Below are positions 4,133 to 19,330 of a DNA stretch of 64,000 bases, piece by piece. Origin of the DNA: Bacteroidota bacterium (GTDB lineage: Bacteria > Bacteroidota > Bacteroidia > B-17B0 > Aurantibacillaceae); assembly GCA_013298715.1 (NCBI GenBank), contig JAAFIQ010000016.1:1-64000 (forward strand), given 5' to 3'. The number at the start of each line of letters is the position of its first letter. Position 1 is the first letter of the stretch. The translations under genes and the position numbers were made by a program. The notes beneath the pieces are model-generated. The model did no database searches and was not told the origin of the DNA. It was given only the letters and a program-made list of their open reading frames with translations.

Positions 4133-4133
4133 T

Positions 4134-4610
4134 ATGAATTATATAATTAGAAACGCCGTTAAAACTGATATTTCAACTATTTTAAGTTTGTGTTCTGAGC
4201 ATGCTGTCTATGAACGTATTCCTTTCTCGCCAGAAAATAAAGCTGATAAACTATCGAAGTTACTTTTTAATGATAAACCGTATGGATTTTGTTTAATTGC
4301 AGAGTGCGAAGGAAAAGCTGTGGGCTATGCAACCTATAGTTTTGAATTTTCTACCTGGGATTCGGAAATGTATGTGCACATGGATTGCCTGTATTTACAG
4401 GAGAATTTTCGCGGATATGGTATTGGGGAAGCTTTAGTTAAGAGAATTGCACAAAATGCCTCAGAAAATAACATCCGCTTATTACAGTGGCATACTCCGC
4501 CATTCAATGAGAGAGCCATTAAATTTTATAAAAGAATTGGAGCCACTTCAAGAGAAAAAGTTCGCTTCTATTTAAACGAAGGCGCAATTAAACAACTTAT
4601 TCAAAACTGA
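4134..4610 (+). CDS. GNAT family N-acetyltransferase
   Basis: The 158-residue protein begins IIRNAVKTDI and carries the GNAT core: an acceptor strand with MDCLYL, the acetyl-CoA pyrophosphate loop in ENFRGYGIGEAL, and the late motif WHTPPFNERAIKFYKRIGA. GNAT enzymes move an acetyl group from acetyl-CoA to an amine; the layout resembles diamine or small-molecule acetyltransferases, but the substrate cannot be read. I start at ATG 4134 because the upstream TTG (4110) lies inside the previous gene and adds an unrelated tail. It is the third gene of the 2740-7741 run. Confidence 0.85.
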   Translation: MNYIIRNAVKTDISTILSLCSEHAVYERIPFSPENKADKLSKLLFNDKPYGFCLIAECEGKAVGYATYSFEFSTWDSEMYVHMDCLYLQENFRGYGIGEALVKRIAQNASENNIRLLQWHTPPFNERAIKFYKRIGATSREKVRFYLNEGAIKQLIQN

Positions 4611-4617
4611 TCTAAAA

Positions 4618-7218
4618 ATGAAAACTAAATTTGTATTGTTCTGTCTATTCCTTCTATCGTTAAGGATACTCTCGCAAACGCCCAACTCGGTGCAGCAACT
4701 ACCTCCACATCAATCTGAAAGAGTTTCAAACATTGACATAAAACACATACTATTAAATTTAAAATTTGATTGGGGAAAAAAACAGGCCTTTGGAAGCGCT
4801 GAACTTTCACTTTCATTAAAAACTGAAAGTAATATTATTTATTTAGATGGCGCTCATCTTAATATTCAAAAAGTTACACTAAAAAACGGAGAGAAGCTTA
4901 ATTACATTTATGACGGTTCTGAAAAAGATAACGCTCTGCAAATTACACTTAATAAAACCTATACTAACTTGGATACGATTAGTGTAATTGTTTATTATAA
5001 TACAAAATGGAAAAACAACATAGACCCAAATTACTTGAGTGGCAACAATGGTAAAGGTTTGCGTTTTTCTCAACCAACAACCAACGATTCTTTAAAACCA
5101 AATGAGATTTGGAGTTTTGGCGAACCTCAATCAAACCGATATTGGTTTCCATGTTACGACTCACCAAATGATTTAAGGACAACCGAATTTATTGCAACCC
5201 TTGATAAAAACCTAACAATGGTATCGAATGGAAAACGAAGACCCGTTAAAACTAATCCCGAAGGAACCAAAACTTGGCATTGGAAAACAGAGATACCTTA
5301 CGCTAATCACTTAACTGCATTTGTAGTTGGCGAATTTTTAGATGTTGCTGAAAGTGATGTTGAAAATAAATTAACAACTCATAACTATGGATCACCTAAA
5401 GAAGTTGATTGGGTTATAGCAAGCACAGAGCGACTAAAAGATATGATGAACTATTTTTCTAAAGTGATTGGAATAAAATATCCTTTTGAAGATTATTCAC
5501 AAGTTTTTGTTCAAGATATAGGCTCATTTTCAGGAAATACAGGCTTTTCAACCATATCAGAAAACATGATTGATGACAAAGGTACACATGCAGATTTTTT
5601 TTATTTGTGGGATCAGGTTGAGGCTGAGGCATTGGCTCAACAATGGTTTGGAAATTACATTTCGATAAAAAACTGGAAAGATGTATGGCTTACCAAAGCA
5701 CTTGCACGAAGAATGCAACAATTATACAACGAACAAAAAAATGGGAGCGATGAATTTCTTCTTTACCAACTTTCGTTTGACCAATCAGCCTATTTTAGCG
5801 ATTGGAATGCAGATTACAGACATCCGCTTTGTACTGAAAATTATGAAAATATAAGTAATTTCACTACAGATAATTATGCAACTTATAGAGGAAACCTTGT
5901 AATTAATATGCTTCACAAACAACTAGGCGATGCTGTTTGGTGGAAAGCAATACTAAAGTTTGCAAACGTCCACGCAGGAAAACAAGCAACAACAAAGGAT
6001 TTTGAAAATATTATTAATACCGTTGCGCAACAAGATTTGTCATGGTTTTTTAATCAATGGATTTACAAAATGGGACATCCACTTTTTGAAGCAACAAAAA
6101 CCTATAATGAAAAAACGAGGGAATTGACGCTAACACTCATTCAAAAACAAATGATTGATAGCACAAATAAATACCCACAGGTTTTGTATTTTGAGGGGAA
6201 AATGGAAATTGAAATTGATGGGAAAATTGAAACTATTCAGCTTGCGCCCAAAAAAGAAAACATGTTTAAATTTATTTTACCAAAAAAGCCAAGCTTTGTA
6301 AATATCGATTTTGCTAGTACATGGATTAAAGAATTAAGTTACGAAAACACATTAGATGAATTAATTGCCATAAGTCTTAACTCCAAAGACGCCTTGGCAA
6401 GACAAAACGCATTTGTAAAACTAGGAGAGATTGCAAATAGCGAAAAAACAAGTTTAGCAGATAATGAAAAAATAATTTCAGTATTCAAACAAATTATTGT
6501 AAGCAAAGCCTATTGGAGATTAAGAGTAGCTGCGCTTTTCCAACTGCGTACTGTACTTTTAACAACATCAAAAAAAATTGATTCAAGTACAAGTAATATG
6601 CTTTTAAAATTAATTGCAACAGAGCAATCTTATTTAAAAGCAAGTGCTATTAACTTTTTAGGATTTACACAAGATAAAAAATATGCGCCAATTTACATGC
6701 GCGCATTATCTGATAAAAGCGATAGAGTAATTAACCTCGCCGCTATAGCCTTAGGGAAAACAAAAGATGAAAAAGCCTTTGATGCACTTGTAAAATTAAT
6801 TGACCGACCATCCATGAAAAGTCAAAGTTTATTAAGTGCAATTAGTGGCTTTAAAGAATTAAATGATGTGCGCTGCTTTGATATAATTTATAAAGTACTA
6901 GCAAACACGAACCTTCCACGTTGGCGACTCCCTGACGCTTCTGTTTGGGATTACAGAATTGTTGCTGCTGAACTCCTTCATCAAATTGGGAAATCAGCCG
7001 ATACTTATCCATTAATAATTTCACGCTTTAAAAAATCAGTTGAAGAAGATGATTTAGGTGGAATATTTAATAATATACTCTTAATAAACAAGCTAGCCGA
7101 TGAACGAGGACAGGAGGCTTTTGATATATTAAAAGAAAAATACAAAAACGATACCTTGTTATTAGAAGCCACACTTAATTACGAAACACAATTTAAATCA
7201 CAACTAAAAAATAAATAA
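4618..7218 (+). CDS. M1-aminopeptidase-like protein lacking the catalytic zinc site, with HEAT-like C-terminus
   Basis: The 866-residue exported protein has a signal peptide (about 1-19, ending SQT). The M1 architecture follows: an N-terminal beta domain with SNRYWFPCYDSPND, a catalytic-type domain (about 230-480) and a helical HEAT/PBS-lyase-like repeat region (about 580-860). In active M1 enzymes zinc is held by HEXXH-x18-E. Here the aligned residues are E337, A338 and Q341 (EALAQQWFGN) and K360 (WLTKALA), in exact register, so both His ligands, the general-base Glu and the Glu ligand are all replaced. The GxMEN exopeptidase loop is also lost (SFSGNTGFS). The fold-keeping motifs QQWFGN and YATYRGNLVINML remain. 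It is therefore probably a non-enzymatic binding or scaffold protein. The frame is open throughout. Confidence 0.85.
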   Translation: MKTKFVLFCLFLLSLRILSQTPNSVQQLPPHQSERVSNIDIKHILLNLKFDWGKKQAFGSAELSLSLKTESNIIYLDGAHLNIQKVTLKNGEKLNYIYDGSEKDNALQITLNKTYTNLDTISVIVYYNTKWKNNIDPNYLSGNNGKGLRFSQPTTNDSLKPNEIWSFGEPQSNRYWFPCYDSPNDLRTTEFIATLDKNLTMVSNGKRRPVKTNPEGTKTWHWKTEIPYANHLTAFVVGEFLDVAESDVENKLTTHNYGSPKEVDWVIASTERLKDMMNYFSKVIGIKYPFEDYSQVFVQDIGSFSGNTGFSTISENMIDDKGTHADFFYLWDQVEAEALAQQWFGNYISIKNWKDVWLTKALARRMQQLYNEQKNGSDEFLLYQLSFDQSAYFSDWNADYRHPLCTENYENISNFTTDNYATYRGNLVINMLHKQLGDAVWWKAILKFANVHAGKQATTKDFENIINTVAQQDLSWFFNQWIYKMGHPLFEATKTYNEKTRELTLTLIQKQMIDSTNKYPQVLYFEGKMEIEIDGKIETIQLAPKKENMFKFILPKKPSFVNIDFASTWIKELSYENTLDELIAISLNSKDALARQNAFVKLGEIANSEKTSLADNEKIISVFKQIIVSKAYWRLRVAALFQLRTVLLTTSKKIDSSTSNMLLKLIATEQSYLKASAINFLGFTQDKKYAPIYMRALSDKSDRVINLAAIALGKTKDEKAFDALVKLIDRPSMKSQSLLSAISGFKELNDVRCFDIIYKVLANTNLPRWRLPDASVWDYRIVAAELLHQIGKSADTYPLIISRFKKSVEEDDLGGIFNNILLINKLADERGQEAFDILKEKYKNDTLLLEATLNYETQFKSQLKNK

Positions 7219-7219
7219 A

Positions 7220-7741
7220 ATGAAAAAATCAGATATTAAAAAAATGCCCGAATACTTTGATAGATACATAAATCTAACCGATGATGTAGCTTATATGGAA
7301 GCGCTTGAAATAAGTTTAAAAGAACTACAAAACTTACCATTAGAAAAATTTAAAGCCATTGGAGATAAAACCTATGCATCAAATAAATGGACTATTAAAG
7401 ATATTTTACAACATTTCATTGATACAGAGCGTGTTTTTAGTTATAGAGTAACAGCCTTTGCGCGAGAAGATGGGCAGAATATGTTATCGTATAACGAAGA
7501 TTTATATGCAAAAAACGCACATGCCAACTTACGCAGTTTTGAAGATTTAATTGAAGAATTAATTCTAGTTCGCAAAAGTTATATAGCCCAATATAAATCA
7601 TACACACCTCAAATGCTTTTAAAATCTGGCAAAGGTTATAATGGTTCAGAGTACTGCGTTTTATCTATGGCTTTTATGATTCCAGGACACCAACGCTGGC
7701 ATTTAAGAGTGATTGAAGAAACTTATTTTCCTTTAGTTTGA
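7220..7741 (+). CDS. DinB superfamily protein
   Basis: The 173-residue four-helix-bundle protein has the DinB/YfiT metal-site pattern: H65 in DILQHFIDTE, and H157 and H161 in PGHQRWHL. Members bind a divalent metal and many are thiol transferases (bacillithiol or mycothiol dependent), but the substrate here is not readable. The name DinB comes from a Bacillus DNA-damage gene and does not mean polymerase IV. The ATG lies one base after the stop of the M1-like gene, so the two are co-translated. It is the last gene of the plus-strand run. Confidence 0.8.
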   Translation: MKKSDIKKMPEYFDRYINLTDDVAYMEALEISLKELQNLPLEKFKAIGDKTYASNKWTIKDILQHFIDTERVFSYRVTAFAREDGQNMLSYNEDLYAKNAHANLRSFEDLIEELILVRKSYIAQYKSYTPQMLLKSGKGYNGSEYCVLSMAFMIPGHQRWHLRVIEETYFPLV

Positions 7742-7796
7742 TATAGATAAGCTGTTGAGAATAAAATTTAAATATTTCAAAAATTATTTAAAGAAA

Positions 7797-9524
7797 TTAC
7801 TTCTTAACCAAAAAATTACCAATTACAAGAGCATCCAAATCGCTTTCAACAAAAGATCTAATCGCATCTTTTGGGCTACACACTATTGGCTCACCCTTAA
7901 TATTAAACGACGTGTTTAAAACAACAGGATGGCCAGTAATAACCTTAAACGCTTCTAATAATTGATACATTTGAGGGTTTTCATCGGTATTAACTGTTTG
8001 AATTCTTACCGTTCCATCAACGTGTGTTATTGCTGGCATTAATTTTTGGTACTCTTCTTTAACGCCATAAACTAACAACATGTATGGATTTGGTAAATGA
8101 AACGTAAAATACTTACTGCACTCTTCTTCATTTACAATTGCAGCAAATGGTCTAAAGCCTTCTCTAAACTTAATGCGGCTATTAATTTTATCTTTCATGT
8201 CTGCTGGAAATGGGCTGGCTAAAATACTTCTATTGCCTAAAGCTCTTGGACCATATTCCATTGCGCCTTGAAACCAGCCTATTATTTTTCCTTCGTTTAA
8301 AATTTTTGCAGTTTCACTATAAATCGAATTTCCTAAATCTTTATAATTAAGCTTAACGTTTTTTAATTCTTCTTCGTATTTGCTTGTTGGGTAATTCATT
8401 CCTAAAAATGCACTTTTCATAGTGTACTTTCTTGGTCGGTTCAATTCATTATGCAAAAGCAACAAAGCGCTTCCTAACGATGTGCCAGAATCGCCCGCAG
8501 CAGGCTGAATAAATATATTTTCGAATAAACCCGATTGAATTAATTTTCCATTAGCAACGCTATTTAAAGCTACGCCACCCGCCAAACAAATATTTTTGCA
8601 ATTGGTTGCTTTTTTTAAATAGGTAGCCATGTGTATAAATAATTCCTCCACAATACGCTGTGCGCTTGCTGCTAGGTCGTATTCAGCTTTGTTCCAATTT
8701 TTACCTTCTGTTTTTGATTGGCCAAACAAATTGGTAAATTTTTTAGTTACACCACTTTTTCTTGAGTAATGATAACTAAAGTACGACATATCAAAACTAT
8801 ATTTTCCATTATCTAAAAATTGAAACAAGCTTCTTAAATCTTTATATATTCTGCCATCTGCATTTCCGAAAGAAGCCAAGGCCATCAATTTACCTGGACC
8901 TTCAATCAACTTAAAACCTAAGTGCATAGATATTGCTTGATAAAATGCGCCCAAAGAGTATGGTGTATCAACGGTACCCAATTTAGCAATTCTATTTCCT
9001 TTACCGTGGCCTAGTAAAGTAGTCGACCACTCCCCTGCTCCATCAATTGTAAGAATTGCCGCCTCTTCAAAACCTGAAGGATAAAATGTACTCGCTGCAT
9101 GACACATGTGGTGTTGCATGTAATGGAACTCAAATTTTGTTTTTTCTGTTTCACCAAAAAGTGTTTTCATTTTTTTTGGCAAGGCATACATATCCTTTAA
9201 ATAGTTTAGCATGCCTAAATTTTCTTCCACCGAAAATGATTTTTGCTCTTTAAGAAGCTTTGGAACTTTATCAAAAAATTTAATAAAATAATGCGGTATG
9301 TGTTTTAAAGTAAGTGTAGGGTTCCAAAAAAAAGTTACATGATCTATATCGCTAAATTTTATTTTACCAAACGCTAAACACGCTTTAATAGCATTAATAG
9401 GGAATTGGCCATCGTGTTTTTTTCTGGTAAGGCGTTCTTCTTCAACTGCAAAAACTAAAACATCATCTACTATAAGCGCCGCAGATGAATCATGACCAAA
9501 AGCATTTAAACCTAAAACTATCAT
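7797..9524 (-). CDS. Carbamoyltransferase (NodU/CmcH family)
   Basis: The 575-residue protein opens with GLNAFGHDSSAAL and has the HHMCHAAS metal motif (residues 138-145) and DGAGEW (161-166). It ends in a YrdC-like domain with YGPRALGNRS, which in this family makes carbamoyl-adenylate from carbamoyl phosphate and ATP. The N-terminal Kae1-like domain then transfers the carbamoyl group to a hydroxyl of a sugar or natural product. It is the last gene of a four-gene minus-strand operon, three bases after the TMTC-like gene, so a glycan acceptor is likely. The family is certain; the acceptor is inferred. Confidence 0.9.
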   Translation of the reverse strand: MIVLGLNAFGHDSSAALIVDDVLVFAVEEERLTRKKHDGQFPINAIKACLAFGKIKFSDIDHVTFFWNPTLTLKHIPHYFIKFFDKVPKLLKEQKSFSVEENLGMLNYLKDMYALPKKMKTLFGETEKTKFEFHYMQHHMCHAASTFYPSGFEEAAILTIDGAGEWSTTLLGHGKGNRIAKLGTVDTPYSLGAFYQAISMHLGFKLIEGPGKLMALASFGNADGRIYKDLRSLFQFLDNGKYSFDMSYFSYHYSRKSGVTKKFTNLFGQSKTEGKNWNKAEYDLAASAQRIVEELFIHMATYLKKATNCKNICLAGGVALNSVANGKLIQSGLFENIFIQPAAGDSGTSLGSALLLLHNELNRPRKYTMKSAFLGMNYPTSKYEEELKNVKLNYKDLGNSIYSETAKILNEGKIIGWFQGAMEYGPRALGNRSILASPFPADMKDKINSRIKFREGFRPFAAIVNEEECSKYFTFHLPNPYMLLVYGVKEEYQKLMPAITHVDGTVRIQTVNTDENPQMYQLLEAFKVITGHPVVLNTSFNIKGEPIVCSPKDAIRSFVESDLDALVIGNFLVKK

Positions 9525-9527
9525 ATT

Positions 9528-11486
9528 TTATTTTTCTTTTTTCTTTTCTTGTAAGGCTACGTTTAAATTGCCTTTTAATAATTCGTTTGTTGGATCTACC
9601 AATAGTCCTTTATTTCCTGCTTCTATGGCTTTATCCCATTGTTTTAGTTCGTTATAAGATGAACAAATGTTGTTATACGCCAATGAATAATCTGGTTTTA
9701 ATTTTAAAGCCTCATTGCAAGCAACTATGCACTCATTAAACTGTTTAGCATTGTAATACGCTAAACTTAATTCTATATAATTTTCGGGAGTTGGATTAGT
9801 TTTCACTTTATCCATTTCTTCCTTAATTTTTGCCTGCAATAGTTTATCAGGATTTCCAACCAATAATTCAATTTCATTTCTTAAACTTAATAAACCACCG
9901 TGCATACGGCTTTTTTGAATACCAGTATTTACTAATGTTGCAGCTTCGGTAAAACGCTTTTGTTTTATCAAAAACTTTCCGTAGTAAAAATAAAATTCAG
10001 GATTTTCTGAATCAAGATTTAATGCCTTTTTAAAATCCATTTCTGCTTCGATGAATCTATTTGTAACAGATTTTAAAATACCAAAGTTTATAAATAGATA
10101 AGGATATTCGGGCCAAACTTTTAACGCAGAATTATAAGCAACCTCTGCCTCCGCATAAGCTCCTCTGCTCATTAATGAATTGGCGTAATTCATCCAAACG
10201 CGTCCGTTTTTAGGAGATTTTAATGTGGCTTCCTTCCAAAGACCTTCTGCTGTTTGCCATATCGCGTTTTGCTTATAAGTACCAACACTATGTAAAATTA
10301 AAACTGCCACAATGCCAATTTTAAAAACTGCTTTTAAGTTGGTTTTTATTGCGTAAAGATTGTATAGTAACATAAGTAAATAAGCAGAAGATAGCGTTAA
10401 ACCTATATATGCAAAAAATGGTCGGTGATCGTTTAAAACTTCTGCTAAAGGAATAATGCTGGATGATGGCAGTAAAGCAAGAATAAACCAAGATAAGCCA
10501 AATGAAAGCAAAGGATGTTTTTTAGCACACTTAACAATTATTACAATTAAAGCTACTAAAAATCCTAAGCCAATTAAAAATCTATCATCGGTAATTTTAG
10601 TTACAAATTCCCAATCGGTATCAACTACCAAATTAAATGGTAAGAAAAAATTATTAAAGTAATGAATGAAAACAAAAGGTTGTGAGATTAAATAGTTCCA
10701 CCTATCCAAGTTACCCGAAGTCCAAGTGGCTGGAGTCATTGATTGAGAGAACGCAAAAAGAAGAGCAGCCATGATAAATGCTAATGAAGATGATAAAAAC
10801 ACAGCAATCAAATTTTTAAACTTAAATATAGATTGTTCTTTGTATTTTGATTCGAAAAATAATTTATAAACCGTCAAGAGTGGCGCAAACATAATAGCTG
10901 GCTCTTTGACCATAAAACCGATAACCATAGGCAACAAATACAAATAAAACTTTTTAGCCAAAGGAGAATAAAAATAAAGTAAAAAACCAACCACTACCAT
11001 TAAGGTAGAAAAAGAATCATCGCGCGAGATGATGTAATTGATTGTTTGTGTATTGGCGGTATGCACACAAAACAAAGTAGCAACCAATAAAGAGGCATAA
11101 AAGCTTAATGTGTTGCTAAAATAGTTTTGAAATAAAAATTTAGAAAAATAAAATAAACAAATTCCAAGCACAATAAAACTTACAAAAATTGAAAAATGAA
11201 AATAAAATGGAACTGGCTTATCTTGCCCACCAATTGCATAATCGATAGCATTTAGAGTGGTTAAGCCTGGTCGGTATGCTTGACTTTTTGGAAGTGTGCT
11301 TGTAGTACGGGCATCTTTAAAAAAAGTAGGAATGTTTTTTAATTCTCTAATTGCAGTATTATTTACAATTGTATGCTCATCATCAAACTCAAACGGATTA
11401 TTAAAATGATTTGAATAAGCAATGCACACCAGCAAAGCTGCTAATAGGCAAATTGCCAGTTTTGTTATTTTTCCATTGGCTGACAT
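9528..11486 (-). CDS. TMTC-like multispanning protein with C-terminal TPRs (putative GT-C glycosyltransferase)
   Basis: The 652-residue protein has about ten membrane helices in residues 1-410 and TPR repeats from about 420 to 645. The first outside loop carries an acidic motif, EFDDEHTI (D35, D36, E37), followed by a Tyr-Arg-Pro motif (QAYRPGL). This is the layout of GT-C fold transferases, in which the first-loop acids act on a polyprenyl-phosphate sugar. The membrane plus TPR arrangement matches the eukaryotic TMTC1-4 O-mannosyltransferases. In the operon it sits beside a DPM1-like enzyme that could make its lipid-linked donor. A non-enzymatic TPR membrane protein is the alternative. Confidence 0.72.
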   Translation of the reverse strand: MSANGKITKLAICLLAALLVCIAYSNHFNNPFEFDDEHTIVNNTAIRELKNIPTFFKDARTTSTLPKSQAYRPGLTTLNAIDYAIGGQDKPVPFYFHFSIFVSFIVLGICLFYFSKFLFQNYFSNTLSFYASLLVATLFCVHTANTQTINYIISRDDSFSTLMVVVGFLLYFYSPLAKKFYLYLLPMVIGFMVKEPAIMFAPLLTVYKLFFESKYKEQSIFKFKNLIAVFLSSSLAFIMAALLFAFSQSMTPATWTSGNLDRWNYLISQPFVFIHYFNNFFLPFNLVVDTDWEFVTKITDDRFLIGLGFLVALIVIIVKCAKKHPLLSFGLSWFILALLPSSSIIPLAEVLNDHRPFFAYIGLTLSSAYLLMLLYNLYAIKTNLKAVFKIGIVAVLILHSVGTYKQNAIWQTAEGLWKEATLKSPKNGRVWMNYANSLMSRGAYAEAEVAYNSALKVWPEYPYLFINFGILKSVTNRFIEAEMDFKKALNLDSENPEFYFYYGKFLIKQKRFTEAATLVNTGIQKSRMHGGLLSLRNEIELLVGNPDKLLQAKIKEEMDKVKTNPTPENYIELSLAYYNAKQFNECIVACNEALKLKPDYSLAYNNICSSYNELKQWDKAIEAGNKGLLVDPTNELLKGNLNVALQEKKKEK

Positions 11487-11493
11487 AATTTTT

Positions 11494-11859
11494 CTATTCA
11501 GTACCTGTTTTATTACCTTCTTCTAACTTTGTTAGTCGATCATTTAAAATGGCTACTTCTTGAGTCAAGTTTTTTATTTGCAGGCGTTGTTTTGATATGA
11601 GTATGCTTAGGTGTAAACAATAAATAATTAGCAATAAAAATAAGGCAATAAATAACAGCGATGGCGCATAATACACACCAAAAAAACTGGCCATAATTTC
11701 AATGCTATTTCGCCAAAAAGCAACAATATTTAAGAAGATAGCACTTAGTACCCAAATGATACTAAACTCTTCGCGTAATTTTTTTTTTGCTATTAGCTTA
11801 AATACTACAAATAAAAATACTAACGTAACAAAAATGCTTATGTACTGTATAAACGACAT
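11494..11859 (-). CDS. DUF2304 family small membrane protein
   Basis: The 121-residue protein has three predicted membrane helices (about 5-23, 34-52 and 66-90) and a C-terminal coiled coil (LTQEVAILNDRLTKLEEG). DUF2304 proteins are usually encoded directly after a DPM1-like family-2 glycosyltransferase and are thought to anchor or regulate it. That is the arrangement here: the gene begins one base after the glycosyltransferase stop and ends seven bases before the TMTC-like start. The family call is good; the role is by association. Confidence 0.8.
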   Translation of the reverse strand: MSFIQYISIFVTLVFLFVVFKLIAKKKLREEFSIIWVLSAIFLNIVAFWRNSIEIMASFFGVYYAPSLLFIALFLLLIIYCLHLSILISKQRLQIKNLTQEVAILNDRLTKLEEGNKTGTE

Positions 11860-11860
11860 A

Positions 11861-12586
11861 TTACTTCGATTTAAAAAAAACGTAATTTAATTTTAAAAAA
11901 AATATTGCCAAACTTACCTTTAACATGTAATAAATAGAGTTTGTTATACCACTTATTGAGGACTTGCCCTCTTCTCTTTCTTTCATAATTACAGGCACTT
12001 CGGTAATAGTAAGTCCATTCAGTTTTGCATAAACAATTGCTTCGGGTTCAGGATATTTATCGGGGTAGTAATTTGCAAATAGTTGAATTGCTTTAGAATT
12101 AAATAATCTAAATCCTGAGGTGCAATCAAAAACTTTTTGTTTTGTACTTAATCTAATTAAAACATTTAACACTCTAATTCCTATTCTGCGGGCGGCAGAT
12201 GATTGAAATCCTTCCCATTTAATGTACCGCGAACCTAAGCAAATATCGCAATTGGAATCCATTGCGCCTTTCAGTATTTTTTCTACCTCAGATGGCGGAT
12301 GCTGACCATCACCATCCATTTGCATTGCAAAATCAAACTTATTTTTAAATGCGTACTTAATGCCACTTTGCACGGCGCCGCCAATGCCTAAATTATTTGG
12401 TAAGTTTAAATACTGTTTTGAGCTGTTGCTGATTTTTTCTAATGTATCGTCAGCAGAACAATCGTTAACTGGAAGTGTAGTAAATTCATAACCTTGAACG
12501 TTTAATTTATTCACTTCATCCAACAACTTTGCAATATTTTGCCCTTCGTTATAACAGGGTATAATTATTAATACTTTTTTTGTCAA
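11861..12586 (-). CDS. Family 2 glycosyltransferase, dolichyl/polyprenyl-phosphate mannose synthase-like
   Basis: The 241-residue GT-A enzyme begins VLIIIPCYNEGQNI and has the nucleotide-sugar/metal motif MDGDGQHPP, the acceptor motif GSRY, and a C-terminal hydrophobic segment (about 218-236) that should hold it to the membrane. DPM1-like enzymes load a hexose from a nucleotide sugar onto a polyprenyl phosphate on the cytoplasmic face. It is the first gene of the four-gene operon, so the product may be the donor for the TMTC-like protein downstream. The sugar cannot be read from the sequence. Confidence 0.87.
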   Translation of the reverse strand: MTKKVLIIIPCYNEGQNIAKLLDEVNKLNVQGYEFTTLPVNDCSADDTLEKISNSSKQYLNLPNNLGIGGAVQSGIKYAFKNKFDFAMQMDGDGQHPPSEVEKILKGAMDSNCDICLGSRYIKWEGFQSSAARRIGIRVLNVLIRLSTKQKVFDCTSGFRLFNSKAIQLFANYYPDKYPEPEAIVYAKLNGLTITEVPVIMKEREEGKSSISGITNSIYYMLKVSLAIFFLKLNYVFFKSK

Positions 12587-12640
12587 TTTAAAAACTCTTG
12601 TTAAATAACATGGTAAATATAAACTTATATTGCATAAAAT

Positions 12641-13573
12641 TTATTTACTAAAATAGTAACTTTTTAGCAACCACTCCTCTACAACTTTTTGAATTAAATA
12701 AATACCTTCATATTTAATGTATTCGGCATCGTCATCGGGTTTGTGGTAATCGTTATGCGTACCCGACGTTATGGATAAAGATTTGATATTATTTTTATAA
12801 AATATTTTACAATCGGTTAATAAAATATCATCCGATTTATCTAAATACAATTTAACCTTACCGTTAGGGCTTCTGTACTGTTTTAATTTACTTCTAAAAC
12901 CCAAATCAAATTGATGTATTCCAAGAAATGAAAGATTTGATTCATTATAAACATCTAACCTACCCACCATATCAAAATTAATACATCCCTTTATAGGCGG
13001 GAATTTCGTCTTGGCAAAATCATAAAATGCCAATGAACCAAATAAACCAATTTCGTGTGCTGAATAAGCCACAAATAAATAATTCACTTTTTTATTCCCC
13101 CAAATGTTATAACTTTTTGCTAAACCAAGCAACAGGGCAACTCCAGATGCGTTATCATCCGCTCCATTGTGAATTTGATTTTTTTTATTGTAACCCAAAG
13201 ATAATTTGCCACCTAAACCAATATGCTCGTAATGTGCGCCAATTACAACTGTGCTATCTGCCTTGTTATTAATAAAACAATAAATATTGTTGGATGACCT
13301 AGCTACACTTGTATCGTATTTTTGATAGATAAATGATTGCCATTGAGGTTTAAACTTCTTAATCTTTTTAAACTCGTTGGCAACAAAGTTAGCAGCTTTT
13401 AGTTCATGTGCTGTAGAAACTTCTCTCCCCATAAAACTATCATTTGCCAAGGTATAAACAATATGCTTGTAATAATTAATTGCTGCTAACGAATCTTTAG
13501 TTTGGGCAATAATCAAATTCCCGCAACTAAACTTAATGAGCGTGATAACTAAAATAAAGTTCCTCAATTTCAT
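12641..13573 (-). CDS. M28 family zinc metallopeptidase
   Basis: The 310-residue exported protein has a signal peptide (about 1-23, ending IIAQ). Zinc-binding motifs of M28 are visible: GAHYEH (H114 or H117), GADDNASG (D139/D140), AHEIGLFGS (E174), NFDMVGR (D201) and a late GTHNDYH. M28 enzymes are di-zinc aminopeptidases, here probably periplasmic or surface facing. Many members have Glu-Glu at the position of H173-E174, the first Glu being the general base; His here is worth checking. I start at ATG 13573, because the in-frame start at 13609 lies inside the terminator hairpin of the upstream gene. Confidence 0.85.
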   Translation of the reverse strand: MKLRNFILVITLIKFSCGNLIIAQTKDSLAAINYYKHIVYTLANDSFMGREVSTAHELKAANFVANEFKKIKKFKPQWQSFIYQKYDTSVARSSNNIYCFINNKADSTVVIGAHYEHIGLGGKLSLGYNKKNQIHNGADDNASGVALLLGLAKSYNIWGNKKVNYLFVAYSAHEIGLFGSLAFYDFAKTKFPPIKGCINFDMVGRLDVYNESNLSFLGIHQFDLGFRSKLKQYRSPNGKVKLYLDKSDDILLTDCKIFYKNNIKSLSITSGTHNDYHKPDDDAEYIKYEGIYLIQKVVEEWLLKSYYFSK

Positions 13574-13593
13574 TGTTAAAAGCTGTTTTAAAC

Positions 13594-13627
13594 AAAAAAG
13601 GTTTCTCATGTATGAGAAACCTTTTTT
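13594..13627 (-). terminator. Rho-independent terminator of the collagen-like gene
   Basis: A perfect 16-base inverted repeat (AAAAAAGGTTTCTCAT and its complement) has only two bases between the arms. On the minus strand it forms a strong hairpin ending in six T, 18 bases after the stop of the collagen-like gene. It also rules out the longer start of the M28 gene. Confidence 0.85.
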
Positions 13628-13644
13628 ATAAAAATTAATTTAAA

Positions 13645-15594
13645 TTATCTGTTTTGATTTTGTAACATCTGAGTTTTTTGCTCACGAGTTGGGTTTAATG
13701 AAGAAGGTAAATCTTTACCAAACTTAATTGTTTGACCATCCCACCAGAAAGCTTCTCCGTTTTGTTTTTTGTTACCATCGTTAAATAACACGTTACCTAA
13801 GTTACGGTCAAACGATTTAGTTTTTACAAACGCAGGAACTTCAGTATTAGCAACATCAACACGGTTACCAACTGAAATCCAAGAGATTTGAACATTTGAG
13901 TTACCGTTGTTTAATTCTTTTACAGTAAAGCCAGTTTTAGTTACAGCAGTAACGTAAACACCATTACACTCACCCATAGCAGAAACAGTTACAACTGGCT
14001 CTTCGCCTAATAATTTAGCATAGCTTGCGTCAAATTCAATTGTAGCCGTACCATTTACTAAATTAATTTTTCCTTTTTTGTAAACTGTAGCTTCAGTTGA
14101 AGTAGCAGCAAAAGCAGGCACCATTTCTTCGCCAGATTTTACTAATTCAATATTTTTACCAGAAGTATAAACATCACCAATATTGTAAGCAGCAAATAAA
14201 TCACCACTATTGATATGACCAATAACCGAACCTTTTGATAAAGTACCAAATGTTCCAAAGAAACCACCACCAACGCCATTAGCTTCGGCAGTAGGTACTA
14301 AACCTGCTCCACTTGTATAAGCACCAGAACCATATACACCATAGTTTAATAAACCACTACTTCTGTAGCCTAATGAACCCCAATATGTACCATTTACATC
14401 AGCTCCTAATGAACCACCTGTACGGCTGTAATCGTTGTAACTATAACTTGCATCACCAAAGGTATAAACATCACCCCAGAAATTAAATCCACTACTTGCA
14501 CGGTTGGTTGATATTTGAGAGTAGTTTGTACCATCATTTTGGCTATCGCGTGTACGGTAACCATATAAAGTAGTTTGTCCATCACCATTAACTGTTAATT
14601 GTTGACGGTAAGCATATAATTGATAAATAAGACTTGGTGTTATTAAACCAAGACTAACACTTGTACCATTATCTTGCATTAAAGAGTTACCTAAGCCAGT
14701 AGCACTTGTAAACTTAGAGATATAGTTAGTAGTACCAGCAACTGAACCAGGACCAGTAGGACCAGTTACACCATTAGCACCTGTTGCTCCAGTAGCACCA
14801 TTTGTTCCGTTAGTACCAGCAGCACCAGTTGGACCTACAGGACCTGCTACACCAGCAGCACCTGTTGCGCCAGTAGTGCCATTTGTTCCGTTAGTTCCAT
14901 TAGCTCCAGCAGCACCTGTTGCGCCAGTAGCACCATTCGTTCCATTTGTTCCGTTAGTTCCGTTAGTTCCGTTTGCTCCAGCAGCGCCAGTTGGACCCGC
15001 AGGACCTGCTACACCAGCAGCGCCCGTTGCACCAGTTGCTCCAACAGTACCATTGGTTCCGTTAGTACCATTAGCTCCAGTAGCACCTGTTGCACCGTTA
15101 GTTCCATTGGTTCCGTTTGCTCCAGCAGCACCTGTTGGACCCGCAGGACCAGCTACACCAGCAGCTCCAGTTGGACCAGTAGCTCCACCTGTACCCGAAG
15201 TTTCAGCATATAATGCATATGGTACACTTAAAAATTGTGATGCTCCCATGTTAACTAAACCTGAACCAAAATCAATTTCTTGCTCAATAAATTTAGAACC
15301 AGAGCCCCAGTTAATTGCATTAAATGTTCCACTAATTACAGTTCCTAAACCAATATTAACGTTATATAAACCAAATGAATTGGTTGTAACAGCGTGAGTT
15401 TCTTGGTAAATTACTGGACCATTGGGAGCATTGTTGCGAATAGTTAATTGCAAAGTTAGCGGTTGCCCAGCTAAAACTGCTCCAGCTGCGTTTCTTGCCA
15501 CGCCCTGGTACTTGATGCTCTGAGGCGCTTGTGCGCTCATAAATGTAATTAACCCAAATAAGGATAGAATTACTGCAATTGTTTGTTTTCTCAT
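13645..15594 (-). CDS. Secreted protein with collagen-like Gly-X-Y region
   Basis: The 649-residue protein has a signal peptide (1-21). A conserved Bacteroidota N-terminal domain follows (about 22-130; [36 protein letters not shown]). Residues about 133-283 are a collagen-like stretch of Gly-Ala-Thr, Gly-Pro-Thr, Gly-Thr-Asn and similar triplets. A C-terminal region rich in Gly, Tyr and Ser follows, with a beta-rich end. Such proteins form surface or matrix filaments. It follows the T9SS-tail gene by 25 bases and may share its transcript, but it has no clear T9SS tail of its own; its last residues are polar ([12 protein letters not shown]). Function beyond a structural or adhesive role is unknown. 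Confidence 0.82.
14745..15195 (-). repeat. Degenerate repeat region coding for the collagen-like triplets
   Basis: About 450 bases of 9-base-unit repetition encode the Gly-X-Y stretch. Longer blocks are duplicated inside it: the peptide block [18 protein letters not shown] occurs twice, and a variant with [12 protein letters not shown] once. This points to growth by slippage or unequal recombination, and the length is likely to differ between strains. Confidence 0.8.
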
Positions 15595-15619
15595 TTCTGT
15601 TTTTGTTTTTTATTTGTTA

Positions 15620-16126
15620 TTAATTACTTTTTACAATTTTAAATGTTTTATTTACACCGTTAGAGGCATTACTGATTGTTACAAAATAATTTGCATTTGC
15701 CAATTCAGTAAAACTAAGATTCATTTTTTTATTACTGCCAACGTCTACTTTAGTATTTGATTGATAAATTAATTTACCTACAGCATCAGTAAGTTGTACG
15801 TTGTAATTACCGCTTTCAACTCCCGTAAAATCTATAACTAACTCGTTAAAAACAGGATTTGGGTAAACAAAAAGGCTGATATTTTTATTATTTCCTTTAA
15901 TGAAGGTTACCACATCCAGTGAATTTGGTTGTTGAAATCCCATTGTGGCAATATTGTTAGAAGCAGTTGAAGTACCTGATATAGGTTCTCCTATTGTCCA
16001 CGAGTTGTTTCCTTGAGAAGAAGAATTATAATCTCCTTGACTACTAAACACTGTAGGGGTAACTGTTTGTGCCTTTACGTAAAAACTTGCAAAAACAATA
16101 AGTGTTAAAATAAATTTTGATTTCAT
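15620..16126 (-). CDS. Small T9SS type A sorting-domain protein
   Basis: The 168-residue protein has a signal peptide (about 1-19, ending KAQ), a short Ser/Gly-rich domain with SWTIGEPISGT, and a type A T9SS sorting tail (about 85-168: VYPNPVFNELVIDF, NYNVQLTDAVGKLI, NYFVTISN). The tail directs export through the outer membrane. The passenger is only about 65 residues, so the protein may act as a surface cap or adhesin subunit. I chose the ATG at 16126 in front of the signal peptide. It lies directly upstream of the collagen-like gene in the same direction, which suggests joint expression. Confidence 0.82.
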   Translation of the reverse strand: MKSKFILTLIVFASFYVKAQTVTPTVFSSQGDYNSSSQGNNSWTIGEPISGTSTASNNIATMGFQQPNSLDVVTFIKGNNKNISLFVYPNPVFNELVIDFTGVESGNYNVQLTDAVGKLIYQSNTKVDVGSNKKMNLSFTELANANYFVTISNASNGVNKTFKIVKSN

Positions 16127-16428
16127 GATTTGATTTAATTTATGCAAAAATATAATTTTTATTTATATTAACAAATCAAATGTGATGAAAGTGGCAAAAA
16201 ATGTTTTAAACATTACTAATTAATTTAGATAACTACCATTAACATTTAATTAAAAAAGCGCCTTTAATCCCAAAGTATTGATTATCGGAGGGTTATTTAT
16301 AGAAGCTACCTCAAGTTTTAAACGCTTCTGTTTAAATTGAAAATTTTTGAAATCCTCAAATTTTAATTCAAGATCTAGGGGAAATTGGCAATTCAGAAAA
16401 AAATAAACACACTATTTATAAATATAAT
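16127..16428. other. Divergent intergenic region, no gene seen
   Basis: About 300 AT-rich bases separate the leftward T9SS gene from the rightward TTG-start operon. Apart from the -7 element at its right end I see no reading frame, repeat or structured RNA. Confidence 0.5.
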
Positions 16429-16436
16429 TAGTTTTG
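16429..16436 (+). promoter_or_regulatory. Bacteroidota -7 promoter element
   Basis: TAGTTTTG matches the TAnnTTTG consensus exactly and lies 18 bases before the TTG start at 16455. No good -33 TTTG is seen at the expected distance, so this is half a promoter. It supports the TTG as the true start because the transcript would begin just before it. Confidence 0.5.
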
Positions 16437-16454
16437 CGTTGAATTATTTAAAAT

Positions 16455-16859
16455 TTGAACGAAGAACATATAAAGTTGGCCTTGTTGGATTGTTATTTGA
16501 AGCGCAACAAAATTAATACAGAAAGAAACTGGTTTTGTAAGGCTTTTGAGCAATCTTTAAAAAAATTAGACATCAACTTTAATAAACTTGATGTGGAGAT
16601 TGCTAATTACATTTTTAAAAACCCAAATAAAATTAATGTTGTGGATAGCGGATTATCTTTGTTTAGGAAGGAATCTGAACTACGCAAATTTTTTCTTTTG
16701 ATTAATGCCTTAATAGAATGTGATGTGAAAAATAATATTCGGTATATGAATGATAGTTATGCACATTTCGTTTTTTTTAATCTTTTTACCAACTTTATAA
16801 TAGCAAGTTTTAATTCTATAAACGCAATTATTTTATTTAAAATTAAAGGTTGGAGATAA
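16455..16859 (+). CDS. Hypothetical protein, first gene of a TTG-start operon
   Basis: The 134-residue protein is mostly helical, rich in Asn, Lys and Phe, and has a hydrophobic C-terminal segment (about 105-128: FVFFNLFTNFIIASFNSINAI) that could be a membrane helix. No family is recognised. Translation must start at TTG 16455 or very near it, since a stop lies at 16449-16451 and the next Met is far inside. It overlaps the GMC oxidoreductase gene by ten bases. Small proteins next to GMC oxidoreductases are sometimes partner subunits, but I see no sequence match to such subunits, so this is only position-based. Confidence 0.6.
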   Translation: MNEEHIKLALLDCYLKRNKINTERNWFCKAFEQSLKKLDINFNKLDVEIANYIFKNPNKINVVDSGLSLFRKESELRKFFLLINALIECDVKNNIRYMNDSYAHFVFFNLFTNFIIASFNSINAIILFKIKGWR

Positions 16860-18463
16860 ACGACATTATAGTTATTGGCTCTGGATGTTGCGGTAGTATT
16901 GTTGCTAAAACAATTATTGAAAATGGCGGTAAAGTTACTCTACTAGATGTTGGGATTGAGCAAACAAAAAAATACACATCACCCGAAAATAATTTTGTTG
17001 ATATAAGGAGTAAAGATTCAGAGCAATGGAAATATTTGCTAGGAGAAAATTTTGAAGCTTTAAAAGTTTTAAATACAGAAGATCCTTTACACTTAACCCC
17101 AAATAGATTTTTTGTTACAGATAAAGTTTCTGAATTCTATCATTGGATAGATAACACGTTTAACGGCGTTGAATCACTTGCCATTGGCGGTTTAGGAAAC
17201 GCTTGGGGCTTAGGAAGCTACATTTATTCAAAAGAAGAACTCCTTAAAACTGGTTTACCAGTAAATGAAATAAACCAGGCTTATTTATGGTTGCACAAAC
17301 ATATTGGGATAAGTGGCGGTAACGATTCTGCCGCAAAGTATTCTAATGGAAATCTGTTTCAAGCGCAAAACGCCATCCCCTTGGATTATAATGGTGAACG
17401 CCTCTATAAAAAATCGCAACAATTTCAAAAAAAGTTTGAAGCTCAAAACGTTTATATTGGCAGAGCGCCATTGGCCGTGAGCACAGATAATGACTTAAAT
17501 GGCGAAAAACATTTGGCAAACGATTTAGAATTTTACGAAATAGAAAACGCTTCTGCTTTCAGACCAATAAATATTATTAAAGACTTAATAAAAAAACACG
17601 AGGTTAGTTTTAATTATATCCCAAATCAGCTTGTTTTAAAATTTATTGAGTTGGAAGATAGCACTATTAAAATAGAATCGCTAAACATTAAAACAAATAT
17701 TATTGAAATTAATTATTGCAAAAAATTAATTATAGCTAGCGGCGCACTTGCTACAGCCAGGATTGTAATGCGCTCAACGAATATCACTCAGTTACCAATC
17801 TTGTGCAATCCTTACAGTTATATTCCTTCTATACAACCCAAACTTTTAGGTTCTAAAAACGATGGTTATCAAACTGGTTTAGCGCAATTGAGCATTTATT
17901 ATGATAAGGAAAAAGCTAATACACTTATAGCAATGGGTTCGGTTTATAGTTACAGAGCATTAATGAACTACAGACTGTTGCGCGAATTTCCGATTGGAAT
18001 GAACGATGGCACAAAACTTTTAAAATATTTACAGCCTGCTTTAAATATAACAGGTATCTTTCATCCTGAGGAGTCTGGAAATGGAAAAAATATTAGTTTA
18101 ATAAACGATTCATCAAGTAGAACCGGTGATAAATTAAAATGCAATTATCCATTAAGCGAAACTGAAAAACAAGAAATAGAGCGGACTACCAAAAAATATA
18201 AATCTGTTTTAAGAAAGCTAGGAACATTGCCATTGATGGTAAAACACAACAAAATTGGTTCGAGTATACATTATGGAGGCACATTACCATTTAATGAAAA
18301 TTATAATAATCCTATTGCACACAACTCGGATGGGAAGCTCCTAAAATATAAAAATGTCTATATAGCTGATGGTTCTGGTTTTAAATTTTTATCAGGAAAA
18401 GGATTAACTTTAACTTTGATGGCCTATGCACATCATGTAACAAAAAAAGTAATTGGAAAATAA
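16850..18463 (+). CDS. GMC-type FAD-dependent oxidoreductase
   Basis: The 537-residue protein starts with a Rossmann FAD motif (IIVIGSGCCGS, residues 6-16) and an acidic strand end (LLDVG). A GGLGNAWG motif follows, and the C-terminal GMC motifs are GSSIHYGGT (H474 as the likely catalytic His) and VYIADGSGF. GMC enzymes oxidise alcohols or sugars with FAD. There is no signal peptide, so it is probably cytoplasmic. Translation starts at TTG 16850, inside the previous gene, and the next gene starts inside its own 3' end. With the epimerase downstream, a sugar or lipid-alcohol substrate is plausible but not proven. Confidence 0.82.
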   Translation: MEINDIIVIGSGCCGSIVAKTIIENGGKVTLLDVGIEQTKKYTSPENNFVDIRSKDSEQWKYLLGENFEALKVLNTEDPLHLTPNRFFVTDKVSEFYHWIDNTFNGVESLAIGGLGNAWGLGSYIYSKEELLKTGLPVNEINQAYLWLHKHIGISGGNDSAAKYSNGNLFQAQNAIPLDYNGERLYKKSQQFQKKFEAQNVYIGRAPLAVSTDNDLNGEKHLANDLEFYEIENASAFRPINIIKDLIKKHEVSFNYIPNQLVLKFIELEDSTIKIESLNIKTNIIEINYCKKLIIASGALATARIVMRSTNITQLPILCNPYSYIPSIQPKLLGSKNDGYQTGLAQLSIYYDKEKANTLIAMGSVYSYRALMNYRLLREFPIGMNDGTKLLKYLQPALNITGIFHPEESGNGKNISLINDSSSRTGDKLKCNYPLSETEKQEIERTTKKYKSVLRKLGTLPLMVKHNKIGSSIHYGGTLPFNENYNNPIAHNSDGKLLKYKNVYIADGSGFKFLSGKGLTLTLMAYAHHVTKKVIGK

Positions 18464-19316
18464 ACCTACCATTATAATAACAGGCGCCACTGGCTTTGTA
18501 GGAAATGAAATCCTAAGGTTTTTTCATTCAAAAAATTTTAAAATAATTGTATTAGCGCGCGAAATTCCTTCAACAAAATTAAACAACGTAAGCTATTACA
18601 ATTATGATTTAGCGAAACCTATTAATGAAACTATTAATTTTAAAAATTCAGTTGTAATACACTGCGCTTACAGCAAAAACAATACACTCCAAAATACAGA
18701 TGTAAATGAATTGGCTTTAAACAATATCCTTTCAAAAGTAAAAAACGAAACTACTGCACATTTAATTTTTTTATCGAGTATAGCCATAAACTTTAACTCT
18801 AATACTTATTACGCACGTCAAAAGAAAAAATCAGAAGAGATCTTGAACTCATTTAATTGCTCTATACTAAGATTAGGACTGGTAGTTGGTAAAGGTGGTT
18901 TGTTTTATAAAACCGTAAAATTCATAAAAAAATTTAGAATTCTTCCTTTTGTAAACGGTGGCAAACAGCCCATTTACTATGTGTTTGTGCAAGATGTTTT
19001 AAATTGCATTGAGCAAATAATCAACAACAAAACCTTCGGCACTTTTTTCTTATTTAACCAAAATCCTTTGGAGTATAAAATTTTCTACAAATTAATCGCT
19101 GAAAAAATTAACGTAAAAATAATTTGTATCAATATCCCGTTTTGGTTAATAAAGTTTACCTATACCCTTTTTAGTTTTGCCCTAAAAAATTATTTTACAA
19201 TGGATAGCTTAAACGGACTAAAAAAGGCTAGTACAATTAATACAGAACAAATTGTGAATCAAAACTTCGACTATAACTTTAAAAATTTAGGTGAGTTAAA
19301 ACCCGCTGATTTATAA
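18453..19316 (+). CDS. NAD-dependent epimerase/dehydratase family protein
   Basis: The 287-residue short-chain (extended SDR) protein has the nucleotide-binding motif GATGFVG (11-17) and the catalytic Tyr-Lys pair in YARQK (Y120, K124). The family alters nucleotide sugars, such as epimerases and dehydratases, or reduces related metabolites. It begins with TTG, 11 bases before the end of the GMC gene. A hydrophobic stretch near residues 225-250 (IPFWLIKFTYTLFSFAL) is unusual and may touch the membrane. It is the last gene of the three-gene operon. Confidence 0.82.
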   Translation: MENKPTIIITGATGFVGNEILRFFHSKNFKIIVLAREIPSTKLNNVSYYNYDLAKPINETINFKNSVVIHCAYSKNNTLQNTDVNELALNNILSKVKNETTAHLIFLSSIAINFNSNTYYARQKKKSEEILNSFNCSILRLGLVVGKGGLFYKTVKFIKKFRILPFVNGGKQPIYYVFVQDVLNCIEQIINNKTFGTFFLFNQNPLEYKIFYKLIAEKINVKIICINIPFWLIKFTYTLFSFALKNYFTMDSLNGLKKASTINTEQIVNQNFDYNFKNLGELKPADL

Positions 19317-19330
19317 TTCAATAAAGTTAA

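What the first reader, a model, noticed from the sequence alone, without database searches (positions are those of the whole stretch)
7797..12586. TMTC-like operon: DPM1-like synthase, DUF2304, GT-C/TPR protein and carbamoyltransferase
Four genes separated by one to seven bases combine a polyprenyl-phosphate-sugar synthase, its DUF2304 partner, a multispanning protein with a first-loop FDDE motif plus C-terminal TPRs (the layout of eukaryotic TMTC O-mannosyltransferases) and a NodU-type carbamoyltransferase. Together they could form a bacterial pathway that builds and carbamoylates a glycan on an exported protein or lipid. I do not know a described system with exactly this set.
Basis: partly seen in the sequence, partly recalled or inferred. 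Interest (0 to 1): 0.6.

Follow-up and report, generated by a model that had tools for sequence, protein, structure and literature searches.

The report
Bacterial sugar-transfer operon with carbamoyltransferase
Four linked bacterial genes look like a machine that loads a sugar onto a membrane lipid, probably caps it with a small carbamoyl group, and transfers it to something outside the inner membrane using a relative of the animal O-mannosyltransferases; each part is a known type, and I found no description of this combination.

Summary
In detail: four tightly packed minus-strand genes (12586 down to 7797) encode a GT2 polyprenyl-phosphate-sugar synthase, a GacJ-like DUF2304 protein, a GT-C/TPR membrane protein and an intact NodU/TobZ-type carbamoyltransferase. 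Neither refutation condition was met: the order recurs in 3 of 40 genus genomes, at two different sites, and the modelled membrane domain matches GT-C-fold proteins. The GT-C/TPR protein has the TMTC layout and most TMTC motifs, but is a separate subfamily (NDHR instead of ERxxY; no PF08409 hit). The most solid link is GT-C/TPR with carbamoyltransferase: 15 of 395 sampled genomes of the class have this carbamoyltransferase subfamily, all 15 have the GT-C/TPR gene, directly upstream in 11 (3 elsewhere, 1 undeterminable). The synthase pair is a looser module, often followed by an oxidoreductase and an epimerase whose relatives lie near the operon here. [quoted passage not shown] Sugar, acceptor, flippase and carbamoylation itself are unshown.

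The parts
11861..12586 (-). GT2 polyprenyl-phosphate-sugar synthase (DPM1/GacI/PpgS-like), first gene of the operon
   Evidence: Pfam Glycos_transf_2 2.3e-22; best solved relative is dolichol monophosphate mannose synthase 5mlz, 1.3e-14; NCBIfam PpgS 76 bits, far below its cut-off of 370; motifs PCYNE, NDCSAD, DGD, KEREEGKS present, no hydrophobic segment above the threshold used (patterns recalled)
11494..11859 (-). DUF2304 protein with three hydrophobic segments, GacJ-like partner of the synthase
   Evidence: PF10066 1.3e-23; three hydrophobic segments; DUF2304 is described as typical of GacJ-like proteins (PMC8327497 passage); a DUF2304 ORF beside the GT2 in 17 of 17 loci read (17 chosen of 56 genomes with this GT2)
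9528..11486 (-). GT-C membrane glycosyltransferase (residues 1-412) fused to TPRs (about 413-651), TMTC-like
   Evidence: Modelled membrane domain: best 25 VIA-align rows are 21 GT-C glycosyltransferase/OST rows and 4 GPI-transamidase subunit rows (PIG-U, recalled as GT-C-like), Z 12.1 to 6.5; TPR families in the C-terminal third; DD, YRP, RxD, K, DxDW and P..P positions conserved in 77 strong homologues to the degrees given in Membership tests
7797..9524 (-). NodU/TobZ/GdmN-type O-carbamoyltransferase, last gene of the operon
   Evidence: Carbam_trans_N 1.2e-69 and Carbam_trans_C 7.8e-71; match over residues 8-574 to decarbamoylnovobiocin carbamoyltransferase 9s2t, 7.2e-95, and to GdmN; TobZ matched in three stretches; motifs present (patterns recalled)
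16455..16859 (+). 134-aa protein without Pfam match, relative of the small gene that follows GT2-DUF2304 in other families
   Evidence: hmmsearch with a profile of 7 such proteins 4.2e-12; no Pfam family at E<=0.01
16850..18463 (+). 537-aa FAD/GMC-like oxidoreductase, probable further part of the pathway
   Evidence: Weak Pyr_redox_2 and GMC_oxred_C, below cut-offs; same cluster follows GT2-DUF2304 elsewhere; in the genus found in 3 of 40 genomes, the three that carry the operon
18453..19316 (+). 287-aa NAD-dependent epimerase/dehydratase, probable further part of the pathway
   Evidence: PF01370 3.7e-10; same cluster follows the oxidoreductase in other families and in both congeners
13645..15594 (-). 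Collagen-like protein with a signal-like N-terminus and 50 Gly-X-Y triplets rich in Thr; only a speculative candidate acceptor
   Evidence: PF01391 2.2e-20; residues 134-283 hold 50 triplets, 17 GXT and 15 GTX; part of a block conserved with the oxidoreductase/epimerase genes in two congeners, but a relative also lies in G013, where the GT-C/TPR gene and the oxidoreductase were not found

Best explanation
[quoted passage not shown] GT2 with DUF2304 puts a single sugar on undecaprenyl phosphate at the inner face of the membrane. The soluble carbamoyltransferase uses carbamoyl phosphate and ATP to cap a hydroxyl of that sugar while it is still on the cytosolic side, either as sugar nucleotide or as lipid-linked sugar. 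A flippase not encoded in the operon moves the lipid across. The GT-C domain then transfers the capped sugar to an exported acceptor, probably a protein or protein complex held by the periplasmic TPRs. In congeners within another family a methyltransferase takes the place of the carbamoyltransferase. Shown here: gene content, predicted GT-C fold, motifs, conserved linkage and the swap. Inferred: order of steps, sugar, flippase, carbamoylation of this glycan and acceptor.
For: Gene identities. Review passages describing GT-A plus small membrane protein, flippase and GT-C as one kind of system (PMC8035078), with DUF2304 typical of GacJ (PMC8327497). GT-C fold: best 25 VIA-align rows are GT-C proteins, next row unrelated. 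TMTC motifs in the matching loops. Profile match over 371 columns to four distant TPR GT-Cs, probability 99.9%. Of 395 genomes of the class, 15 carry this carbamoyltransferase subfamily and 15 of 15 carry the GT-C/TPR gene (72 of 395 overall), directly upstream in 11. GT2 relatives: 42 of 56 genomes also carry the GT-C/TPR gene. Swap with a methyltransferase at one syntenic site: flanking proteins 83-92% and GT-C/TPR 76% identical between L078 and L080. The four-gene block is kept together at two different sites in the genus.
Against: No activity is shown for any component. No flippase lies in the operon and I did not search the genome for one. In 3 of 15 genomes (G127, G162, G167) the carbamoyltransferase is not next to the GT-C/TPR gene, and in G235 it runs off a contig end so adjacency cannot be told. 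14 of 56 genomes with the GT2 have no GT-C/TPR match at E<=1e-60, so the synthase pair can serve something else. Genomes are related, so co-occurrence overstates independence; on the tree the carbamoyltransferase label needs as few as 6 changes and lies within one 34-row set. The operon sites of G026 and G027 are shared, not independent. The structural model is of modest confidence (pLDDT 62), Foldseek alone gave no E below 0.001, and VIA-align's own note warns that Z under about 13 can be common for helical bundles.
Confidence: 0.56

Rival explanations
1. The same machinery decorates lipopolysaccharide or another envelope glycolipid (as ArnT or GtrC do) and the TPRs only hold a partner protein.
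For: ArnT is among the closest folds (5f15 Z 11.6). In several of the fetched loci the GT-C/TPR gene lies near KdsD/KpsF-like and LptB-like genes (names recalled from the sequences; positions). A paper on the Pseudomonas syringae LPS core holds the word carbamoyltransferase (search listing only, PMC8005017).
Against: The KdsD/LptB/TatC/RecQ-like neighbours look like housekeeping genes and may be only an ancestral site. None of these clusters lies in window 1-20000. The TPR domain and the TMTC resemblance suggest a protein acceptor.
Confidence: 0.25
2. The carbamoyltransferase is merely co-located and acts on another molecule.
For: In 3 of 15 genomes it lies elsewhere. Carbamoyltransferases of the wider family are common in the class: 119 of 395 genomes have a match at E<=1e-100, 15 of them of the close subfamily.
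Against: 15 of 15 co-occurrence and 11 of 15 directly downstream on the same strand; kept at two different sites in the genus and found where congeners in another family have a methyltransferase.
Confidence: 0.12
3. It is the missing oligosaccharyltransferase of the general Bacteroidota O-glycosylation system.
For: That enzyme was stated to be unknown in a 2022 paper (PMC8729774 passage), and a GT-C/TPR protein would be a natural candidate.
Against: 72 of 395 sampled genomes of the class carry this family at E<=1e-60 and 3 of 40 of the genus at E<=1e-50, whereas that system is described for the phylum. GT2-DUF2304-type pairs make monosaccharide monophosphate lipids, not oligosaccharide diphosphate lipids (recalled).
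Confidence: 0.04

Closest known systems
GacI/GacJ/GacK/GacL and other multi-component transmembrane glycosylation systems (PMC8035078, PMC8327497; passages seen)
   Same: GT-A synthase plus small three-helix partner making a lipid-linked sugar, used outside by a GT-C enzyme with an acidic motif in an outer loop
   Different: Gram-negative Bacteroidota; GT-C carries a TPR domain; no flippase gene in the operon; a carbamoyltransferase is added; acceptor unknown
Eukaryotic TMTC1-4 O-mannosyltransferases and their uncharacterised prokaryotic full-length homologues (PMC7801869, passages seen)
   Same: 11-helix-type GT-C followed by TPRs; DD, YRP, RxD, K(E), DW and P..P motifs in the corresponding loops; the paper itself notes prokaryotic homologues
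   Different: M7 is NDHR instead of ERxxY; SHK part of M2 replaced by NQ in most homologues; E of M4 in 40 of 77; PF08409 not hit; bacterial polyprenyl donor (inferred) and unknown sugar
NodU/TobZ/GdmN O-carbamoyltransferases
   Same: Both domains and conserved motifs, matches to solved enzymes of the family
   Different: Genomic partner is a membrane glycosyltransferase, not a Nod-factor or antibiotic pathway; a distinct subfamily (in the class, identity drops from 60-78% to 42-44%)
Mycobacterial PpgS (Rv3631) with its small partner and a GT-C (recalled; NCBIfam model PpgS hit)
   Same: Polyprenyl-phosphate-sugar synthase feeding a GT-C
   Different: Score far below the PpgS cut-off, so the sugar cannot be transferred from it

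Membership tests
TMTC O-mannosyltransferases | GT-C fold of the membrane part | tested here: met
   VIA-align on the membrane-only model: of the 50 rows shown, the best 25 are GT-C glycosyltransferase/OST rows (21) or GPI-transamidase subunit rows (4, PIG-U, recalled as GT-C-like), Z 12.1-6.5; first unrelated row 6.1. Cautions: model pLDDT 62, Foldseek best PglB E 0.04 prob 0.99, tool's note on helical bundles
TMTC O-mannosyltransferases | C-terminal TPR domain on the outer (lumenal) side | tested here: inconclusive
   TPRs found; 11 helices fit the model if 184-193 and 197-216 are counted apart, which puts the TPRs outside; topology not measured
TMTC O-mannosyltransferases | Motifs M1 DD, M2 ..YRP, M3 RxD, M4 K(E), M5 DW, M6 PxxP | tested here: met
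   Motifs as listed in PMC7801869. Of 77 strong homologues: D35 75, D36 75, Y71 70, R72 74, P73 76, R155 74, D157 70 (E 6), K194 77, E195 only 40, D291 73, W292 57, P340 77, P346 71. Met for the core letters: M2's SHK part is NQ in most and the two prolines of M6 lie farther apart than PxxP
TMTC O-mannosyltransferases | Motif M7 ERxxY | tested here: not met
   NDHRxF in its place: N352 77, D353 71, H354 76, R355 77, F357 70 of 77; the 5 distant TPR GT-Cs have A, E/D, R at columns 352-354
TMTC O-mannosyltransferases | Pfam PF08409 (TMTC_DUF1736) | tested here: not met
   No hit for the window protein; 8 of 79 homologues hit at E<=0.1, the best being the distant L051 with 24.8 bits, under the cut-off of 27
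TMTC O-mannosyltransferases | Transfer of mannose to protein Ser/Thr | not testable with these tools
   Needs biochemistry
Multi-component transmembrane glycosylation system | GT-A synthase of lipid-linked sugar with membrane anchor or small partner | tested here: met
   GT2 and DUF2304, adjacent; by sequence only
Multi-component transmembrane glycosylation system | GT-C transferase with acidic motif in an outer loop | tested here: met
   D35 D36, GT-C fold
Multi-component transmembrane glycosylation system | Flippase (GtrA or Wzx type) | not tested
   None among the four operon genes; whole genome not searched. A PF03706 or same-cluster membrane protein lies directly upstream of the GT-C/TPR gene in eight fetched loci of other families
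NodU/TobZ carbamoyltransferase | N- and C-terminal carbamoyltransferase domains with motifs intact | tested here: met
   (motif patterns recalled)
NodU (nodulation protein, NCBIfam equivalog) | Equivalog cut-off 1000 bits | tested here: not met
   181 bits: a family member, not NodU itself
Polyprenyl-phospho-GalNAc synthase PpgS | Equivalog cut-off 370 bits | tested here: not met
   76 bits

The most novel reading that the evidence does not exclude
A bacterial O-glycosylation pathway with a swappable cap. A sugar is loaded on undecaprenyl phosphate and remodelled by the oxidoreductase/epimerase pair (oxidise, then reduce, in the manner recalled for DprE1/DprE2). It is capped by carbamate or, elsewhere, by methyl, and then moved by a TMTC-like enzyme onto Thr-rich collagen-like surface proteins such as the one beside the operon.
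Probability: 0.1. Interest if true: 0.78.

Novelty: new variant of a known kind. Interest (0 to 1): 0.5.

Why it matters
If true, it gives a genetically compact bacterial relative of the animal TMTC pathway, with its donor-making enzymes next to it, in which acceptor recognition by TPRs and donor choice could be tested. It would also be a case of carbamoylation built into a membrane glycosyltransferase pathway, and a natural experiment in which carbamate and methyl caps replace each other at one site.

Tried and rejected
General O-oligosaccharyltransferase of Bacteroidota: rejected because the gene is in 72 of 395 sampled genomes of the class at E<=1e-60 and in 3 of the 40 genus genomes at E<=1e-50 (among 87 order genomes). 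A phylum search drew 395 genomes and found 2; the 22 rows shown are all of the same class, so it says little about other classes.

Fold search with the full-length model was filled by TPR proteins, so the membrane part was modelled alone. A sequence profile of the membrane part matched no solved chain at E<=1. Foldseek alone gave no match at E<=0.001; the GT-C claim rests on VIA-align, the motifs and the profile comparison.

Collagen-like protein as acceptor: kept only as a speculation. A relative of its C-terminal part (53% identity) lies beside an M28 gene in G013, where neither the GT-C/TPR gene nor the oxidoreductase was found (G013 is 81% complete).

The operon sites of G026 and G027 share neighbours (a 735-755 aa protein 93% identical and a methyltransferase 58% identical, with one extra gene in G026); only the window site differs.

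Paper searches that found nothing with the combination: carbamoyltransferase, Bacteroidetes, glycosyltransferase, carbamoylated, O-glycan; 4 of 5 terms; 0 papers; tetratricopeptide, GT-C, Bacteroidetes, glycosyltransferase, DPM1, carbamoyl; 5 of 6; 0 papers; 4 of 6 terms; 0 papers; only PMC7801869. The library lacks most subscription journals.

Full report
The thing itself. Four minus-strand ORFs lie at 12586 to 7797 with gaps of 1, 7 and 3 bases: a GT2 of 241 aa, a DUF2304 protein of 121 aa, a 652-aa membrane protein with C-terminal TPRs and a 575-aa carbamoyltransferase. The GT2 has the usual motifs and no hydrophobic segment above the threshold used; the DUF2304 protein has three. The closest solved relative of the GT2 is dolichol monophosphate mannose synthase (1.3e-14). 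NCBIfam's best-scoring model is PpgS, but at 76 bits against a cut-off of 370, so the sugar cannot be named. The carbamoyltransferase matches decarbamoylnovobiocin carbamoyltransferase and GdmN over nearly its whole length, and TobZ in three stretches, and keeps its motifs (patterns recalled).

The membrane protein. Pfam gives TPR and other repeat families for the full protein, and PF08409 does not hit it. Seven motifs of human TMTCs are listed in PMC7801869 (passages). In 77 strong homologues (82 sequences aligned, 5 distant ones counted apart) the DD, YRP, RxD, K, DxDW and P..P positions are conserved to the degrees given in Membership tests, the E of M4 only in 40, and M7 is NDHR instead of ERxxY. 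In the models the motifs fall in the expected outer loops if the helices are read as in TMTCs. The membrane domain was modelled alone from 8 sequences (pLDDT 62). VIA-align's best 25 of 50 rows shown are GT-C proteins: 21 glycosyltransferase or oligosaccharyltransferase rows (yeast OST chain A Z 12.1, Pmt4 12.0, ArnT 11.6, down to ALG6 6.5) and 4 GPI-transamidase subunit rows, taken as PIG-U and recalled as GT-C-like; the next, unrelated, row is 6.1. Foldseek by itself gave weak E-values (PglB 0.04, prob 0.99). A profile of 75 relatives aligns over 371 columns with four distant TPR GT-Cs (probability 99.9%), one of which hits TMTC_DUF1736 below its cut-off. So it is GT-C and TMTC-like, but a subfamily of its own.

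Conservation. In the genus, 3 of 40 genomes carry the GT-C/TPR gene at E<=1e-50, and all three have the same four-gene order (identities to the window proteins GT2 67-70%, DUF2304 72-74%, GT-C/TPR 61%, carbamoyltransferase 77-78%). The sites of G026 and G027 share neighbours with each other but not with the window. The window's M28 neighbour lies on other contigs in both, and its DinB neighbour lies on another contig in G026 and was not found in G027 at E<=1e-30. So the block has been kept together at two different places. In the class (Bacteroidia, inferred from the record title of L036, which is the same contig as G060's), 72 of 395 genomes, drawn evenly from a larger group, carry the GT-C/TPR gene at E<=1e-60; only a few candidates per genome were scored, so this may be a lower bound. 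The carbamoyltransferase subfamily (743 bits or more; next best 466) is in 15 of 395 genomes, and all 15 carry the GT-C/TPR gene. In 11 of 15 it lies directly downstream. In G167, G127 and G162 it does not; in G235 it runs off the end of a 3.9-kb contig, and one of that genome's two GT-C/TPR genes ends at a contig edge, so adjacency cannot be told. The GT2 at E<=1e-50 is in 56 genomes, 42 of which carry the GT-C/TPR gene. The Fisher values ignore relatedness and are not quoted as probabilities. On a tree of 75 rows, 15 with the carbamoyltransferase next to them, 58 without and 2 at contig ends, the label needs 6 changes (shuffled mean 13.9, 0 of 500 as low) and all 15 fall in one 34-row set (quick method).

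A swap. In family f4, genus g4, the locus reads GT-C/TPR then a methyltransferase in L042, L056, L078 and L079 (G039, G203, G262, G135), but GT-C/TPR then the carbamoyltransferase in L080 (G171). In L078 and L080 five flanking proteins are 83 to 92% identical and the GT-C/TPR proteins 76% (methyltransferase by Pfam). Whether G171 has the methyltransferase elsewhere was not tested. Both are enzymes that add a small group to their substrates on the cytosolic side (recalled), so this is the best hint that they act on the same glycan. Other genes in the fetched loci around the GT-C/TPR gene include a sulfotransferase, a polysaccharide deacetylase and a PF03706 membrane protein (positions).

The wider module. 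GT2 and DUF2304 are neighbours in 17 of 17 loci read (17 of the 56 genomes: 12 of the 14 without a GT-C/TPR match and 5 with one). Among the earlier loci, L120 has this GT2 without a DUF2304 hit beside it, and L091 has the two on opposite strands. In L043, L077, L081 and L093 and in L212, L213, L220 and L221 the pair is followed by a 131-135 aa protein, a 534-557 aa FAD/GMC-like oxidoreductase (split in L221) and a NAD-dependent epimerase. Relatives of all three lie at 16455-19316 in the window. In the genus the oxidoreductase is in 3 of 40 genomes, the same three that have the operon, although in the two congeners it is on another contig. These three may be a subclade, so shared descent could explain part of this. 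In all three the block runs M28 peptidase, collagen-like protein, 164-175 aa protein, small protein, oxidoreductase, epimerase.

Reading. The parts match the scheme of multi-component transmembrane glycosylation (PMC8035078 passages), with GacJ-like DUF2304 (PMC8327497 passage). Because the carbamoyltransferase has no hydrophobic segment and its family uses carbamoyl phosphate and ATP (recalled), capping most likely precedes flipping. The acceptor is open. Protein is favoured by the TPRs and the TMTC likeness; LPS remains a real rival. PMC7801869 already notes full-length prokaryotic homologues of TMTCs, so the architecture is not new. The coupling to a carbamoyltransferase was not found.

Noticed in passing
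window 12641-19316: A six-gene block (M28 peptidase, collagen-like protein, 175-aa protein, 134-aa protein, FAD/GMC-like oxidoreductase, NAD-dependent epimerase) is syntenic in G026 (L227) and G027 (L228), on contigs other than those of the four-gene operon.
   Followed up: partly
window 13645-15594 (-): Collagen-like protein with 50 Gly-X-Y triplets, many with Thr; unusual next to sugar-modifying genes. Relatives of its C-terminal part are in 8 of 40 genus genomes at E<=1e-10.
   Followed up: partly
G000:C46:40927-41109 (L222): A second TMTC-like ORF (912 aa) in the same genome, with a sub-threshold PF08409 match (23 bits).
   Followed up: no
L045 7444-11354, L118 6535-10436, L081 6041-10698: Tandem pairs of the GT-C/TPR gene overlapping by four bases, suggesting two-enzyme versions of the system.
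   Followed up: no
L045 6452-7447 and genes in L096, L097, L104, L114, L118, L124, L126: A PF03706 (LPG_synthase_TM; checked in L045 and L096) or same-cluster membrane protein lies directly upstream of the GT-C/TPR gene, a possible lipid-sugar flippase.
   Followed up: partly
L039 10946-11620 and L040 2744-3385: In the two congeners a methyltransferase gene lies upstream of the operon on the same strand (in G026 with another gene between); the window has none there.
   Followed up: partly
G000:C42:129161-130669: A second, more distant carbamoyltransferase (43% identity) in the same genome.
   Followed up: no
window 35022-38540 and 44315-47197: Large proteins with PKD domains and type IX secretion C-terminal signals (Por_Secre_tail, CHU_C).
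   Followed up: no
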